From Pectobacterium punjabense (GTDB lineage: Bacteria > Pseudomonadota > Gammaproteobacteria > Enterobacterales > Enterobacteriaceae): a stretch of DNA of 64,000 nt. The DNA lies in contig NZ_CP038498.1 of NCBI RefSeq assembly GCF_012427845.1, forward strand, positions 434,001 to 498,000, written 5' to 3'. Both the position numbers and the translations under genes were made by a program. Of the stretch, positions 9,101-23,969 are shown one piece after another; positions within the stretch are counted from its first letter, which is position 1, and every line of letters begins with the position of its first letter. The notes beneath the pieces were generated by a model that saw only the letters and a program-made list of their open reading frames with translations, searched no databases and had not been told where the DNA came from.

Positions 9101-9466
9101 TTATTGCGGATCAATAAGGTTGATTAACTTAATAATCACATCCTGTATGAGGACATCCTCCGCGACGGTTTCAAATGTTGCTCCACGTGCAATAAGATCT
9201 ATCGCCTGAGCCTGATGGCATAGCACCACACCCCGTAAATCCCCGCGTTCTGTATCCACTGGCGTGACTACGACGGTGACGCCCGAAGAACGTGCTGCTT
9301 CTGCTTTGGTTGAAATAGGGCAGCAAATGGCGACGCCTAGTGCTGCATTCAATGCACCTTCGGTGACGACAATCCCATAGTGATCGCCTTGCAACTCGCG
9401 ACCGAAAACGGGGTCAGGGCTAAAATGCCAAATGTCACCTTTTTGCGGAATACGTGTTGCTGACAT
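9101..9466 (-). CDS. PemK/MazF-type endoribonuclease toxin
   Basis: Growth-inhibiting toxin of a type II pair; the family cuts mRNA at short sequences. The 121 residues have the PemK/MazF (ChpB-like) pattern: PQKGDIWHFSPDPVFGREL at the N-terminus, HYGIVVTEG, then GVAICCPIST and a GVVLCHQAQAID segment that matches the RSxQ-type strand, ending in a helix. I choose ATG at 9466, which overlaps the antitoxin stop by one base (TAATG); a TTG two codons upstream is also open. It lies antisense to the cas operon, between cas3 (stop 6 bp away) and the cse1 promoter region. Such antisense insertion in a cas operon suggests an addiction or control role, which is inference. Confidence 0.87.
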   Translation of the reverse strand: MSATRIPQKGDIWHFSPDPVFGRELQGDHYGIVVTEGALNAALGVAICCPISTKAEAARSSGVTVVVTPVDTERGDLRGVVLCHQAQAIDLIARGATFETVAEDVLIQDVIIKLINLIDPQ

Positions 9467-9741
9467 TACCAATATTCCTTGCCTGTTGGTACGGCATCGG
9501 TGAAGACTTTCACGTCTTCATTGAGTGCTGCAATCTCTTCACTATCGATTTGAGTGAGTAGCTCTGCAACGCTGAATTTACCACGTGGTTTTCTTTTGGT
9601 CGGTTGTAAACTGATCCCTTCACCACTGCGTTCTACCGCGATTTCTGTCCCTATATCCCACCCCAGTTCTTTACCGTAGTCTCGGGGGATAGTGACGATC
9701 AATGCTCCACCTTGCTGACGAATCTTTACTATTTGCATCAT
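9466..9741 (-). CDS. AbrB/MazE-type antitoxin
   Basis: Cognate antitoxin of the adjacent PemK-like toxin and probably autoregulator of the pair. The first 45 residues form a swapped-hairpin AbrB/SpoVT DNA-binding domain (KIRQQGGALIVTIPRDYGKE, then LGWDIGTEIAVE). The C-terminal half is the acidic tail (SEEIAALNEDVKVFTDAV) that normally wraps around the toxin. Two ATGs in tandem (9741 and 9738) can start it; an AAGAGAA ribosome-binding site lies a few bases upstream. It is the first gene of the toxin operon and is preceded by a predicted promoter and a CRISPR mini-array on the same strand. Confidence 0.87.
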   Translation of the reverse strand: MMQIVKIRQQGGALIVTIPRDYGKELGWDIGTEIAVERSGEGISLQPTKRKPRGKFSVAELLTQIDSEEIAALNEDVKVFTDAVPTGKEYW

Positions 9742-9772
9742 ATCATTCTCTTTCAGTGCTACTTTGTGGAAC

Positions 9773-9800
9773 AGGGTAACACGCTGTGATTGCCTGTCAA
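9773..9800 (-). promoter_or_regulatory. Predicted promoter of the antitoxin-toxin operon
   Basis: On the minus strand a perfect TTGACA (9795-9800) is followed after 16 bp by TACCCT (9773-9778), preceded by TG at one base distance (extended -10). Transcription would start about 25 bp upstream of the antitoxin ATG. The sequence around it should hold the antitoxin operator. Confidence 0.55.
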
Positions 9801-9872
9801 TTAATCAACAAGCATGTTTATTGAGCGATGAAATGCGTTTTTTGGTGGCCTGACTCGCTATTTTTCTTCTCG

Positions 9873-9951
9873 CGGTTTGTCCCCGCTGGCGCGGGGAAGT
9901 ATGACTCAATAGTCCGATTACTCGGTTCATCCCCGCTGGCGCGGGGAACAC
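9873..9951 (-). CRISPR. CRISPR mini-array: two degenerate repeats with a 21-nt pseudo-spacer
   Basis: Two copies of the local 29-bp repeat lie at 9873-9901 and 9923-9951, in reverse orientation to the main arrays. Read on the minus strand, both keep the Cas6e stem-loop core (TTCCCCGCGCCAGCGGGGA). The upstream repeat differs at one base of the 5' handle (ATGAACCG for ATAAACCG). The downstream repeat starts TAC instead of GTG and ends ACAAACCG. The spacer is 21 nt (9902-9922), not the 32-33 nt of all other spacers. Processing by Cas6e would still give a short crRNA. No terminator follows on the minus strand, so a transcript could run into the antitoxin gene. The spacer matches a PAM-flanked site at 9985-10005. 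Confidence 0.85.
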
Positions 9952-9962
9952 GGAAGAAGTTT

Positions 9963-9992
9963 AACATAGTTTAGATAAATAATTTGATTCAA
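9963..9992 (-). promoter_or_regulatory. Predicted promoter of the mini-array
   Basis: Minus strand: TTGAAT (9987-9992), 18-bp spacer, TATGTT (9963-9968). The predicted start, around 9956, lies a few bases before the first degenerate repeat, as expected for a dedicated short crRNA-like transcript. The -35 box is inside the pseudo-spacer target. The hexamers are only moderately close to consensus. Confidence 0.45.
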
Positions 9993-10005
9993 TAGTACGT
10001 TTACT
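9985..10005 (-). promoter_or_regulatory. Candidate Cascade target of the mini-array spacer, with AAG PAM
   Basis: Read on the minus strand, these 21 bases match the 9902-9922 pseudo-spacer at 18 positions. Mismatches are at spacer positions 6, 9 and 18 counted from the PAM side. The three bases directly 5' on the same strand (10008-10006) are AAG, the canonical type I-E PAM. Seed positions 1-5, 7 and 8 match fully. Positions 6 and 18 are ones that Cascade flips out and does not read. Matching stops where the spacer ends. Confidence 0.7.
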
Positions 10006-10008
10006 CTT

Positions 10009-12591
<2,583 letters not shown>

Positions 12592-16373: not shown

Positions 16374-19150
16374 GTATTCCCCGCGCCAGCGGGGATAAAC
16401 CGCACGTTCCGCATGCCCTCGCCACATCGACGTGGTATTCCCCGCGCCAGCGGGGATAAACCGACAGTGCCACCGCGTTGGGGGTAGGCCACAATCGTAT
16501 TCCCCGCGCCAGCGGGGATAAACCGTCAGAATTTAGCTTTTCAAACGATCACATGGAGTATTCCCCGCGCCAGCGGGGATAAACCGCGATCCATAAATTC
16601 CCGTTTTGCGTCTATTGCGTATTCCCCGCGCCAGCGGGGATAAACCGAACAGCAAGATGAACGTTTAACCCATCAAGACGTATTCCCCGCGCCAGCGGGG
16701 ATAAACCGTCATAATTCCATGCAGCGGCATTTGCTCAATCGTATTCCCCGCGCCAGCGGGGATAAACCGGTTTCAGGTTTGTATATGGTTTGCTGGAGGC
16801 GGTATTCCCCGCGCCAGCGGGGATAAACCGCGCCTGTTGGTAAATTGCCAAAAATGGATACAGTATTCCCCGCGCCAGCGGGGATAAACCGAAATTCTGT
16901 AGCCTGTTGAGAATGTTCTCGTCGTATTCCCCGCGCCAGCGGGGATAAACCGTATGCAGTGCCGTGGATATCAGTTCGAAATCGGTATTCCCCGCGCCAG
17001 CGGGGATAAACCGGGTCTTTATCATTGAATGCTAGCCAGAGAAAAGTATTCCCCGCGCCAGCGGGGATAAACCGCAAGCAGAATATGTTGACCTGTTAAA
17101 TAAAACATATTCCCCGCGCCAGCGGGGATAAACCATTTTGCGACTCAGCGGGACCAGATGAAATAACGTATTCCCCGCGCCAGCGGGGATAAACCGGGTA
17201 AATCATAATTTTCGTAATGCGAAGGTCGGTATTCCCCGCGCCAGCGGGGATAAACCGAAATGGCGAAGAAATAAAATTCGACATGACTAGTATTCCCCGC
17301 GCCAGCGGGGATAAACCGCAATTTTTGAGCTATACACGACCATGACTCTAGTATTCCCCGCGCCAGCGGGGATAAACCGCACCGTTGATCCTAACGTTTC
17401 GTTCCATGGAAGTATTCCCCGCGCCAGCGGGGATAAACCTGCATCGTATGAAAAATCAAAGCGCGGCGTTCTGTATTCCCCGCGCCAGCGGGGATAAACC
17501 GGTCTATGTGATGACATGGCTCAAGCGGAAAACGTATTCCCCGCGCCAGCGGGGATAAACCGCGCGGTAACAGTAATGTCGGTCTGGAGTTCGTGTATTC
17601 CCCGCGCCAGCGGGGATAAACCGCGTAGGAACCGGATCTATGTGAATCGCTGGCGGTATTCCCCGCGCCAGCGGGGATAAACCGAGCAGGAGATTCTTTT
17701 CGGGGATGGGACCGGGGTATTCCCCGCGCCAGCGGGGATAAACCGGATAACCTCAATTTCTTCCCTACCCCGGCAAAAGTATTCCCCGCGCCAGCGGGGA
17801 TAAACCGCACAGATAGATTTTTCTGTTGGGCGCTTACTAGTATTCCCCGCGCCAGCGGGGATAAACCGCTGATTTCCATTTTCATCAAATCCGTTTGTTA
17901 CGTATTCCCCGCGCCAGCGGGGATAAACCGTAGTGATTATGAGCACCATTACAGACCCTGAAGTGTTCCCCGCGCCAGCGGGGATAAACCGTGTCAGCGG
18001 ATCGGACGGTCGGTTTTGGGAGAGTGTTCCCCGCGCCAGCGGGGATAAACCGCGCAGTTCATCCATGTACGCCGCCCAATATTCGTGTTCCCCGCGCCAG
18101 CGGGGATAAACCGTGGGCGCGGTATAGTCATGAATCCTCATGTAGGTGTTCCCCGCGCCAGCGGGGATAAACCGTGGGCGCGGTATAGTCATGAATCCTC
18201 ATGTAGGTGTTCCCCGCGCCAGCGGGGATAAACCGCGGGGTCAGAAAAAGACCACTACGCCCAAGACGTGTTCCCCGCGCCAGCGGGGATAAACCGTCTC
18301 CGCGCCCCATGTGTTTTCGTAGGAAAAGGTGTTCCCCGCGCCAGCGGGGATAAACCGCGTTTAGGCGGGAACGGCGCAAGGCCGCTATAGTGTTCCCCGC
18401 GCCAGCGGGGATAAACCGTCTGATTTGTTCAATGCGGCCTCTGTTTTGGGGTGTTCCCCGCGCCAGCGGGGATAAACCGAGGTAAAGGCAGTATCGATTA
18501 TCGGTTTATCCGTGTTCCCCGCGCCAGCGGGGATAAACCGATAATCATTAATGTCCGGCTGCGCTGGTAACTGTGTTCCCCGCGCCAGCGGGGATAAACC
18601 GCGTTTAGGCGGGAACGGCGCAAGGCCGCTATAGTGTTCCCCGCGCCAGCGGGGATAAACCGATTAATTGCATAGACCGGGGGGAATATGCACCGTGTTC
18701 CCCGCGCCAGCGGGGATAAACCGCTTGCAGGCTTGCGATCTCTCTCAAATAAAAAGTGTTCCCCGCGCCAGCGGGGATAAACCGTCTGATTTGTTCAATG
18801 CGGCCTCTGTTTTGGGGTGTTCCCCGCGCCAGCGGGGATAAACCGATAATCATTAATGTCCGGCTGCGCTGGTAACTGTGTTCCCCGCGCCAGCGGGGAT
18901 AAACCGTGAACACGACGATCGCCCAGCCAATTGCGCTAGTGTTCCCCGCGCCAGCGGGGATAAACCGGGGGAAATATCATCCGGCGTGCATATTCGGGGG
19001 TGTTCCCCGCGCCAGCGGGGATAAACCGTACCAAAAATTGGGGATGATAAGCACTCGGAGGTGTTCCCCGCGCCAGCGGGGATAAACCGGCGTATGAGGG
19101 GCAGATTTCGACCACTGATGTGTATTCCCCGCGCCAGCGGGGATAAAACC
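16374..19150 (+). CRISPR. CRISPR array 1, type I-E, 46 repeats and 45 spacers
   Basis: 29-bp repeats of the form GT(A/G)TTCCCCGCGCCAGCG followed by GGGATAAACCG, with a period of 61 bp (32-nt spacers; three spacers are 33 nt). The leader end is at 16374. Repeats 1-26 (16374-17930) read GTATT, except repeat 13 which begins ATATT and ends in A. Repeats 27-45 read GTGTT. The last one (19122-19150) reads GTATT and ends degenerate (AAAACC). Identical spacers occur at 18114/18175, 18358/18602, 18419/18785 and 18541/18846. The spacer at 17014-17045 is also present in array 2 at 22569-22600. Confidence 0.98.
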
Positions 19151-19166
19151 TAATCCGTGGAAGCGG

Positions 19167-19538
19167 CTACAGGATTAGCTGTTCTGGTTCGCAGTGGTAC
19201 AGCTTAGCCAGCTTTTCTCGGGTGCGCTTCTGCGGCCTTGAGTCTGGGGATTCAAGCTGAGAGACGGCCGCTTGGGTCATGCCGAGCGCGGTTGCAACTT
19301 CTTGCTGAGAAAAGCCTCTGAAAATTCTCCAGGCTGCCTGTAAGCTGACATCTTGATCAATGTGGATGCTAACCACTTCATGAGGAATCGAGACGTCATC
19401 CTCTGCGCTATGATCGTAGGGAATGCTCTCATAGAGGGCGGGGTCGTCAGCATTTTCAATAAGTTTCTGATATAACTCGTACGGAACAACAGCATATTCA
19501 GGTTTACCGCTTTTATCCCGAATGACTTGTATGCTCAT
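19167..19538 (-). CDS. HTH antitoxin of a RelE-type pair
   Basis: A 123-residue protein starting at ATG 19538 (GGAG ribosome-binding site 9 bases upstream); longer in-frame starts run into the toxin gene and look spurious. The N-terminus (MSIQVIRDKSGKPEYAVVPY) resembles the short antitoxin strand-helix of RelB/Phd-like partners. The C-terminal half is a Cro/C1-type helix-turn-helix (FSQQEVATALGMTQAAVSQL). It follows the toxin gene with a 73-bp gap, the toxin-first order of HigBA/RelE-HTH pairs. It ends 16 bp from the last repeat of array 1. Confidence 0.82.
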   Translation of the reverse strand: MSIQVIRDKSGKPEYAVVPYELYQKLIENADDPALYESIPYDHSAEDDVSIPHEVVSIHIDQDVSLQAAWRIFRGFSQQEVATALGMTQAAVSQLESPDSRPQKRTREKLAKLYHCEPEQLIL

Positions 19539-22111: not shown

Positions 22112-23789
22112 GTGTTCCCCGCGCCAGCGGGGATAAACCGGCGTTACAGCAAAACGTATTGCGGGTGCGTTGCGTGTTCCCCGCGCCAGCGGGGATAAAC
22201 CGTGCGGGTTTTCTCAGTAATAAATGGGAGTTTTGTGTTCCCCGCGCCAGCGGGGATAAACCGCAATTCAACCGTGCTTTCGCAGTCGTTGCCCCGTGTT
22301 CCCCGCGCCAGCGGGGATAAACCGGCTCAGTAGCACAGTCCGCAGCGCGTAGTAATGTGTTCCCCGCGCCAGCGGGGATAAACCTTTGTGCCACTCAAAT
22401 ACGCCAAATTCAAACCCGTGTTCCCCGCGCCAGCGGGGATAAACCGCGCTCGTTAGGGGTTAGAGGGAAATAATGAAAGTGTTCCCCGCGCCAGCGGGGA
22501 TAAACCGATATTATCGACCCAACCCCCGAACCAAAAGATGTGTTCCCCGCGCCAGCGGGGATAAACCGGGTCTTTATCATTGAATGCTAGCCAGAGAAAA
22601 GTGTTCCCCGCGCCAGCGGGGATAAACCGAGGTTTGTTTAACCCGGTGCCGCCAAAGAAAAGTGTTCCCCGCGCCAGCGGGGATAAACCGAAATCCCAAG
22701 GCTGGATTAACCGCCTGAAAACGTGTTCCCCGCGCCAGCGGGGATAAACCGACGACCCTCCTGTCGGCAAGTTCTCTGCCACGGTGTTCCCCGCGCCAGC
22801 GGGGATAAACCGCGGTTTCTATTATTAACGAAGAGCGAGATAAAGTGTTCCCCGCGCCAGCGGGGATAAACCGCATTCAGGGTAGGAGATGAATTCCTGA
22901 TTACGGTGTTCCCCGCGCCAGCGGGGATAAACCGGATGACTTCACCAACTCCTACGCTAAAATTTCGTGTTCCCCGCGCCAGCGGGGATAAACCGTGGCT
23001 CTGTTGCTCATCAAAGAAAAACGCCCGGTGTTCCCCGCGCCAGCGGGGATAAACCGTAATAAAGGTTTTCGTTAACTTTTGATTTCAAGTGTTCCCCGCG
23101 CCAGCGGGGATAAACCGAAAAATTCAGTCCTTATGAACTTATTATCGAAGTGTTCCCCGCGCCAGCGGGGATAAACCGTTTTTCTTCTTGCTCCATCAGA
23201 TAACGGGTATGTGTTCCCCGCGCCAGCGGGGATAAACCGATAATGCGTCTTTAATAAAGGAGAGCATGACAGTGTTCCCCGCGCCAGCGGGGATAAACCA
23301 GTGGTGTGATGCATGGTATCTTCTGCGCTGCCGTGTTCCCCGCGCCAGCGGGGATAAACCGTGCCGTTGGCGGTTTTCAGTAGTCGCTGCTGTGTGTTCC
23401 CCGCGCCAGCGGGGATAAACCAGCGCAGTAAAGGCGCACATCACAGCGTTAATAAGTGTTCCCCGCGCCAGCGGGGATAAACCGCGAGTTATACAACTCT
23501 AAACCTAAAACCCTTTGTGTTCCCCGCGCCAGCGGGGATAAACCGTAAAGTGCGGCTAACTTAGCCACACTTGATTTGTGTTCCCCGCGCCAGCGGGGAT
23601 AAACCGCGCCTCGCCAGATCGCTTCCTGATACAGGAGCGTGTTCCCCGCGCCAGCGGGGATAAACCGAACCCTGTGTGTCGCAATGACAAAGCGTTGCTG
23701 TGTTCCCCGCGCCAGTGGGGATAAACCGGTCTGCGCCGCCCGTTGCAGGTGTGCTCATAAGTGTTCCCCGCGTCAGCGGGGATAAACGG
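22112..23789 (+). CRISPR. CRISPR array 2, type I-E, 28 repeats and 27 spacers
   Basis: 29-bp repeats with GTGTT at the start and a 61-bp period (32-nt spacers; those at 22141-22173 and 23423-23455 have 33). The distal end is decayed: repeat 27 (23700) has GCCAGTGGGG and repeat 28 (23761-23789) has GCGTCAGCGG and ends ACGG, as expected far from the leader. The repeat at 23272 and the repeat at 23394 end in A instead of G. There is no cas gene of its own; it must use the Cas proteins at 6.4-16.3 kb. Confidence 0.98.
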
Positions 23790-23969
23790 TTATACCCCTT
23801 GTTGTATGTTGGTCTAAATATTCCTCGTGCGGAGTCAAATCCCGCTTCTGGCTGGCGTGATGGCAGATTGCGTGTCAGTATTACAGCATGCTGTTTTTGT
23901 GCTCACCGTACTGGTGAGGTACGATGCCAATAATGTTTGTCTTCCATACGTTACCCGTAAGGAGGTGAT

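What the first reader, a model, noticed from the sequence alone, without database searches (positions are those of the whole stretch)
9873..10005. CRISPR mini-array with a self-matching 21-nt spacer and an AAG PAM, placed before a toxin-antitoxin operon inside the cas operon
Seen: two degenerate repeats (9873-9901, 9923-9951) flank a 21-nt spacer. On the minus strand the spacer matches 9985-10005 at 18 of 21 positions, the matched site has AAG directly 5' (10008-10006), seed positions 1-5, 7 and 8 agree, and the mismatches are at 6, 9 and 18. Known: AAG is the type I-E PAM; Cascade does not read every sixth base (6, 12, 18); short or mismatched guides let Cascade bind without Cas3 cutting; CreA/CreR RNAs with degenerate repeats use this to repress a toxin or cas promoter. 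Inference: Cascade with this short crRNA silences the promoter at 9963-9992, whose -35 box lies in the target. Loss or blocking of Cascade would release transcription towards the antitoxin/toxin genes. Known CreTA systems use RNA toxins; a PemK/MazE-type protein pair behind such a guide is, as far as I know, not described.
Basis: partly seen in the sequence, partly recalled or inferred. Interest (0 to 1): 0.95.

Follow-up and report, generated by a model that had tools for sequence, protein, structure and literature searches.

The report
CRISPR-silenced small toxin gene module
Inside its CRISPR gene cluster this Pectobacterium genome carries a miniature CRISPR guide that matches a site in front of a small conserved gene, so the CRISPR complex would keep that gene, likely a toxin, switched off and release it when the complex fails; guide-and-target pairs of the same layout turn up in nine genera of the family.

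Summary
It looks selected: two unrelated spacers in Pectobacterium each match their own target, and pairs of the same layout were found in 13 loci of 9 genera (cognate seeds 9-10 of 10; 136 non-cognate pairs reach at most 8). The inferred target gene is probably wrong. MazEF has its own conserved promoter block, is replaced by HicAB, a HigA-like gene or nothing beside such guides, and persists where guide and target are lost. The better candidate is an unannotated 54-aa ORF (10187-10351) between target and cse1, under purifying selection. This is the layout of the experimentally tested Cascade-repressed toxin of Citrobacter rodentium (PMC12055562). I read the locus as a CreTA-type module with a small translated toxin candidate; toxicity, RNA and promoter use are untested, and the promoter towards the ORF looks weak here. 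Autorepression of the cas operon (CreR) is the main rival. In passing, E. coli K-12 has a similar guide-target pair before casA.

The parts
9873..9901 (-). 3' degenerate repeat of the mini-array (3' handle of the guide RNA)
   Evidence: 4 of 29 mismatches to the array repeat, hairpin CCCCGC-GCCA-GCGGGG kept
9902..9922 (-). 21-nt spacer (guide)
   Evidence: 18 of 21 match to 9985-10005
9923..9951 (-). 5' degenerate repeat with 5' handle ATGAACCG
   Evidence: 1 of 29 mismatches to the array repeat
9963..9992 (-). promoter-like TTGAAT-18-TATGTT reading into the mini-array; its -35 lies in the target
   Evidence: same letters in G012; not listed by the consensus scan; use untested
9985..10008 (-). 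guide target with AAG PAM (10008-10006)
10007..10035 (+). candidate promoter towards the small ORF and cse1 (TTCCAT-17-TATCTT, weak); same place as TTGTTA-17-TATATT in G019
   Evidence: Picked by position from relatives; not among the four best plus-strand sites of this region and not listed
10080..10105 (+). inverted repeat GTGTTC..GAACAC in the inferred leader of the small ORF, kept in relatives
   Evidence: role unknown, and the fold of the longer stretch does not show it as a hairpin
10173..10178 (+). Shine-Dalgarno AAGGAA of the small ORF
   Evidence: Searched for and found upstream of the TTG start in 7 of 7 Pectobacterium loci
10187..10351 (+). small ORF, 54 aa from TTG (61 aa from ATG 10166): toxin candidate
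   Evidence: pN/pS 0.20-0.61 in 15 pairs; homologs named hypothetical protein
10404..11972 (+). cse1 (casA), first Cascade gene downstream
   Evidence: Pfam PF09481, NCBIfam TIGR02547
9466..9741 (-). mazE-type antitoxin: neighbour, not part of the module
   Evidence: Pfam PF04014; own promoter block 9773-9800
9101..9472 (-). PemK/MazF-type toxin: neighbour, not part of the module
   Evidence: Pfam PF02452
6375..9095 (+). cas3, upstream border of the module
   Evidence: Pfam Cas3_HD and Cas3-like_C_2

Best explanation
The mini-array at 9873-9951 is likely the guide gene (creA) of a CRISPR-regulated toxin module of the I-E locus, in which Cascade carrying this 21-nt guide would sit on 9985-10008 and likely silence the promoter region of the small ORF at 10187-10351, a predicted toxin, and of the cse1 operon behind it. 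Loss or inhibition of Cascade would release the ORF, so the module would guard the CRISPR system. Shown here: guide, PAM and target; their co-variation; the selected ORF between target and cse1; the same layout in other genera. Inferred: that the RNA is made, that Cascade binds, that the short and mismatched pairing blocks without Cas3 cutting, which promoter is blocked (plus-strand, minus-strand or both), and that the ORF product is toxic.
For: Guide-target pairs in 5 of 12 Pectobacterium genomes with full cse1 and in 9 of 30 cse1 loci fetched from the family (G000 counted in both), 13 loci and 9 genera in all. Cognate seed 9-10 of 10 against at most 8 in 136 non-cognate pairs. Two unrelated Pectobacterium spacers each fit their own target; guide position 10 changes together with its target between G004 and G018. 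Position 6 differs in 10 of 13 pairs. The ORF is under purifying selection. An SD-led ORF of 26-96 aa ending 47-79 nt before cse1 is found in 7 of 9 genera (about 2.2 expected from shuffles, 0 of 9 antisense). A plus-strand promoter-like site starting within -3 to +9 of the PAM is the top one in 4 of 9 minus-oriented targets (1.2 expected). In G138, whose cse1 has two stops, guide-like repeats remain but no target was found. Precedent with the same layout and experiments: C. rodentium.
Against: In this window the plus-strand site beside the target is weak and no scan lists it; the best-scoring site there is the minus-strand one. The guide has a seed mismatch at position 9, while in H. hubeiense altering any of the ten paired seed bases had a strong effect (passage). 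G004 keeps guide, target and cse1 but its ORF is frameshifted. G015 and G023 keep an intact ORF and cse1 without guide or target, and five more Pectobacterium have cse1 with only ORF debris and no pair. That ORF remains occur in the same 12 of 25 genomes as cse1 is expected of any neighbour. The ORFs of other genera are mostly without visible kinship and some are within chance length; G186 and G132 have none. No family matches the window ORF. The ORF and cse1 seem to share a transcript, which also fits CreR.
Confidence: 0.6

Rival explanations
1. CreR-type autorepression: the guide leads Cascade to the promoter of its own cas operon so that Cascade limits its own supply, and the small ORF is only a leader reading frame.
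For: CreRs are reported for I-B, I-E and V-A (passage in PMC13131331; review PMC12737573). The targets lie upstream of cse1, though only that region was searched; no terminator was listed on the plus strand between target and cse1. G186, G132 and E. coli K-12 have guide and target but no SD-led ORF was seen.
Against: A selected ORF lies first behind the target in Pectobacterium, and ORFs end at a similar distance before cse1 in 7 of 9 genera. Where the module is absent cas3 lies 66 nt (G081) or 147 nt (G129) before cse1, so the cassette comes and goes together with the ORF or most of it.
Confidence: 0.27
2. One reading: Cascade with this guide silences the minus-strand promoter 9963-9992 and thereby the mazEF-type operon.
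For: The promoter-like site overlaps the target, and only half of the palindrome that separates cas3 from the guide in G018 remains at 9838-9854, so read-through into mazE is conceivable.
Against: Guide-target pairs stand beside a HigA-like gene, HicAB or no TA genes; mazEF persists without spacer and target; mazEF has its own conserved promoter block. In G098 no gene stands between cas3 and the repeats.
Confidence: 0.06
3. A decayed, non-functional array remnant with a fossil self-spacer.
For: Degenerate repeats and a short spacer; single-repeat remnants exist in G015 and G023.
Against: Hairpins, 5' handle, PAM and seed are kept while letters change, in 9 genera.
Confidence: 0.05

Closest known systems
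Cascade-repressed toxin (CreTA) of Citrobacter rodentium type I-E, PMC12055562
   Same: Same subtype, same gap between cas3 and casA, CreA on the strand opposite the ORF, target with an I-E PAM near the predicted promoter, small ORF with ribosome site before casA; toxicity there needs translation (section 13 read).
   Different: Different PAM (ATG there, AAG here) and ORF length (96 bp there, 165 bp with stop here); sequence relation not tested because that locus was not fetched. Here two clear repeats with a 21-nt spacer. Toxicity not shown here.
Haloarchaeal CreTA (H. hispanica, H. hubeiense), PMC8501985 and PMC9458426
   Same: Degenerate repeats (two in most modules), seed 1-5 and 7-11 pairing with a PAM-flanked promoter site, position 6 unread, module next to or inside the cas operon (passages read).
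   Different: Toxin is an RNA there; here a conserved protein-coding frame. In H. hubeiense toxin and guide share a promoter; here they are divergent.
CreR (cas-regulating RNA)
   Same: Mini-CRISPR with limited complementarity to cas promoters, reported for I-E (passages).
   Different: Described in the review as generally not coupled to a toxin gene; original paper not held, known to me otherwise only by recall.
CrePA
   Same: Protein toxin silenced by a crRNA-like RNA and the CRISPR effector (review section).
   Different: The review names a KilA-N domain; no Pfam family was reported for the window ORF.

Membership tests
CreTA-type module | Degenerate repeat(s) plus spacer outside the arrays, at the cas genes | tested here: met
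CreTA-type module | Seed 1-5 and 7-11 pairs with a site carrying the subtype PAM | tested here: met
   AAG PAM; 9 of 10 seed positions, position 9 differs in this strain
CreTA-type module | Guide and target co-evolve | tested here: met
CreTA-type module | Target lies in the promoter of the toxin gene | tested here: inconclusive
   Top plus-strand site at the PAM in 4 of 9 minus-oriented targets (1.2 expected), among the best four in 7 of 9 (3.3 expected), weak in this window
CreTA-type module | The repressed gene is toxic when Cascade is lost | not testable with these tools
   Needs expression or deletion experiments
CreR | Guide represses the cas operon promoter | not testable with these tools
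   Position is compatible, but only the region upstream of cse1 was searched
CreR | No toxin gene coupled | tested here: inconclusive
   A conserved small ORF follows the target, toxicity unknown
CrePA | CreP toxin with KilA-N domain (as in the review) | tested here: not met
   No Pfam or PHROG family listed at E up to 10 for the window ORF (HMMER filters drop most weak matches)
MazEF operon under guide control | TA operon depends on the guide-target promoter | tested here: not met
   Own promoter block in four genomes; kept without spacer and target
Ordinary I-E CRISPR array | 61-nt period with 32-nt spacers | tested here: not met
   50-nt period, 21-nt spacer, opposite strand to the arrays

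The most novel reading that the evidence does not exclude
The gap between cas3 and cse1 in enterobacterial I-E loci is a dedicated slot for Cascade-silenced micro-toxins: guide, target and toxin are all replaced from genus to genus while hairpin, handle, PAM, seed geometry and the toxin's place before cse1 are kept. Pectobacterium holds a new 54-aa toxin family, other genera hold unrelated ones of 26-96 aa, and E. coli K-12 keeps the guide and target without a toxin.
Probability: 0.45. Interest if true: 0.8.

Novelty: new member of a known kind. Interest (0 to 1): 0.62.

Why it matters
If true, CRISPR addiction by small translated toxins is not a curiosity of one mouse pathogen but a recurrent part of type I-E loci in Enterobacteriaceae, and it offers many natural guide-target pairs that show which mismatches Cascade tolerates for silencing without cutting. 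It predicts that deleting single Cascade genes in such strains is costly while deleting the whole locus is not, a simple test. The E. coli K-12 pair, if it works, would put an RNA-guided switch into the most studied cas promoter region.

Tried and rejected
MazEF as the regulated toxin: rejected on gene neighbourhood and its own promoter block. An RNA toxin in the conserved inverted repeat 10080-10105: no Rfam match at gathering scores in 1-30000, and folding the inferred leader did not show that hairpin; left open. A first leader alignment used wrong minus-strand coordinates for two loci and was replaced. A pattern scan with intact stems found only G000 and G098 (2 of 198 family genomes, 1 of 2 in the genus of G098, 1 of 394 order genomes): too strict, since stems change in other genera; it led to the cse1-anchored search. 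A first intergenic-border script mis-set borders at some loci and was replaced by fixed windows. In one search four further hits with only 5 of 8 handle letters (about 1.1 expected) were not counted; one is the mirror image of the G000 pair. G038, G094, G120 and G058 have long gaps or no measured border and gave no pair. One search's rule missed G132, whose stem has a long loop; its pair comes. The count of 13 pairs uses together; position-6, PAM and strand counts are over those 13 and exclude E. coli.

Full report
OBSERVATION. On the minus strand it reads repeat (9951-9923, ending in the 5' handle ATGAACCG), 21-nt spacer, repeat (9901-9873). The spacer matches 10005-9985 at 18 of 21 positions, AAG lies directly 5', and the mismatches are at 6, 9 and 18. 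The window's arrays (16374-19178, 46 repeats; 22112-23817, 28 repeats) run on the plus strand with 61-62 nt periods. All I-E genes are recognised by Pfam: cas3, cse1, cse2, cas7, cas5, cas6e, cas1, cas2. In the own genome only target and guide match the 24-nt PAM-plus-target pattern within 3 mismatches; 0 of 300 shuffles reach the seed score.

RELATIVES IN THE GENUS. Of 25 Pectobacterium genomes 12 have full-length cse1 (one more, G011, has a 71-aa partial hit). Five of the 12 have guide and target: G000 and G012 with one spacer, G004, G018 and G019 with an unrelated one, each matching its own target next to AAG. A-type guides score at most 6 of 10 on B-type regions and B-type guides at most 7 of 10 on A-type regions. 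Guide position 10 and its target change together between G004 and G018; position 6 does not follow. The other seven (G015, G023, G009, G010, G002, G022, G013) give no pair. Of these, G015 and G023 keep one repeat and have lost spacer and target; no repeat core within 3 mismatches was found in the other five (L008-L012).

THE TA NEIGHBOURS ARE EXCHANGEABLE. Beside the guide-target pairs stand MazEF (G000), HicAB (G004 by Pfam; G019 nearly the same proteins by eye), a HigA-like HTH gene (G012; a close relative of it lies beside a HigB in G010) or nothing (G018). MazEF stands without spacer and target in G023, and without any repeat found in G013. The stretch upstream of mazE is alike in G000, G023, G013 and G138 from TTAATTGACA onwards and unlike beyond it in the last two, so MazEF seems to bring its own promoter. 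In the TA-free G018 a palindrome (GTCAGGCCACC..GGTGGCCTGAC) separates cas3 from the guide; in G000 only half of it remains (9838-9854), which suggests that MazEF entered later. This is inference from sequence.

OTHER GENERA. The window Cse1 finds cse1 in 35 of 197 family genomes; 30 loci were fetched with 1500 nt upstream. The distance from cas3 to cse1 could be measured in 26 of 30: under 190 nt in 16 (one of them, G121, from a hit to the wrong part of Cas3 and so unsure) and 370 nt or more in 10. Of those 10, seven hold a pair (G000, G207, G098, G186, G127, G181, G132) and three do not (G038, G094, G138); of the four unmeasured loci two do (G074, G051) and two do not (G120, G058). So 9 of 30 loci have a guide with 5' handle, hairpin and PAM-flanked target. 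With the four further Pectobacterium relatives this makes 13 pairs in 9 genera. PAMs are AAG in 12 and ATG in G181; targets are on the minus strand in 9 and on the plus strand in 4. With AAG alone and the last 700 nt, guides with at least 7 of 8 handle letters and 9-10 of 10 seed matches: 7 found, 0.01 expected from 100 shuffled sets. Cognate scores are 9-10, non-cognate scores 4-8 in 136 pairs; for G207 and G074 1 of 300 shuffles reaches the cognate score, for the other 11 none. Stems change while staying paired, as in G207 CCTCAC..GTGAGG and G186 CCCCAC..GTGGGG. G081, of the same genus as G207, lacks the whole cassette: cas3 ends 66 nt before cse1.

THE SMALL ORF. Between target and cse1 Pectobacterium has an ORF of 48-59 aa (54 in the window) behind AAGGAA. 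It is intact in 6 of 7 loci and frameshifted in G004; the six differ in length by whole codons and pN/pS is 0.20-0.61 in 15 pairs. It or its debris is present in the same 12 of 25 genomes that have full cse1: full-length or nearly full match in 6, two pieces in G004, C-terminal part only in 5; since it is a neighbour of cse1 this is weak evidence. Pfam and PHROGs give no family for it; a profile search lists 7 proteins, those with names being hypothetical proteins of P. versatile, P. carotovorum and P. cacticida. G207 has a 49-aa ORF with 25% identity to the window ORF at the same place. SD-led ORFs of 26-96 aa whose stop lies 47-79 nt before cse1 occur in 7 of 9 genera; the sum of shuffle frequencies for any such ORF of 25 aa or more is about 2.2, and none is found antisense. 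Single cases such as G098 (26 aa) are within chance.

MECHANISM. A study of C. rodentium found in the same gap a CreA-like guide on the opposite strand, a target with ATG PAM over the predicted UP element, and a 96-bp ORF that arrests growth only when translated; a Cascade mutant could not colonise mice unless part of the gap was deleted too (PMC12055562, section 13 read). The window has the same parts in the same order, so I infer the same working. For the nine minus-oriented targets the top plus-strand promoter-like site starts within -3 to +9 of the PAM edge in 4 (G018, G019, G207, G098; 1.2 expected from shuffles) and one of the best four does so in 7 (3.3 expected); the five Pectobacterium are not independent. 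In G000 the top plus-strand site lies elsewhere and only the third-ranked one, with a poor -10, is there; G012 has none. In both the better site is the minus-strand one that feeds the guide, so guide self-control may be added, as reported for H. hubeiense. Spacers of 20-24 nt silence a target gene without interference in the I-B system of H. hispanica (passages of PMC10989794); for I-E this is inference.

RIVALS. CreR is reported for I-E (passage in PMC13131331); the original paper is not held, so I cannot say whether some of these loci are already in it. The ORF and cse1 may share a transcript, and then both functions could be joined. The evidence for a toxin is the selected ORF, the recurrent ORF position and the C. 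rodentium precedent; the evidence against is the frameshift in G004, the intact ORFs without guide in G015 and G023, the five cse1 loci with only ORF debris, and the weak promoter here.

LITERATURE LIMITS. A full-text search for Pectobacterium, CreTA, CRISPR and toxin returned one paper, a TA review that I did not open. The papers on CreR, CrePA and the first CreTA were seen only through reviews and passages. The rule that Cascade does not read every sixth base is supported by the H. hubeiense passage for positions 6 and 12; for position 18, and for I-E PAMs other than AAG and ATG, it is recalled.

Noticed in passing
L073:4854-5034 (E. coli K-12 MG1655, between cas3 and casA): A hairpin CCCTACTTAAGTAGGG with perfect handle ATAAACCG precedes a guide that matches 14 of its first 16 positions (mismatches 6 and 9) at an AAG-flanked site about 217 nt before casA; 1 of 1000 shuffles has a target with 9 of 10 seed matches; no SD-led small ORF seen. 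The region (query of 491 nt) is covered to at least 80% in 1104 of 5426 E. coli genomes. It may be known as an I-E CreR.
   Followed up: partly
L074-L077 (E. coli AR_0085, HS, MSB1_9D, 4/2-1): Within the 24 compared guide and 24 compared target positions, differences from K-12 fall only at guide 12 and target 17 and 20. casA is annotated as broken in AR_0085 and MSB1_9D, yet the seeds are unchanged there.
   Followed up: partly
window 9101-9872 and L002-L012: The stretch between cas3 and the guide or cse1 is an exchange site for classical TA genes: MazEF, HicAB, HigA/HigB-like genes, none, and a 343-aa protein without Pfam match in G002 and G009.
   Followed up: partly
L040 (G138), 197-310 nt before cse1: cse1 has two in-frame stops; three repeat-like hairpins with handles remain but no PAM-flanked target was found, and no small ORF of the Pectobacterium kind was seen by eye.
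   Followed up: partly
window 10080-10105: Inverted repeat GTGTTC..GAACAC with a conserved middle, upstream of the small ORF in the six Pectobacterium loci aligned (one arm altered in G019 and G012); role unknown.
   Followed up: partly
window 10370-10388: Hairpin TGCCGC..GCGGCA just before the cse1 ribosome site; a hairpin at this place also occurs in G081, which lacks the module (by eye).
   Followed up: no
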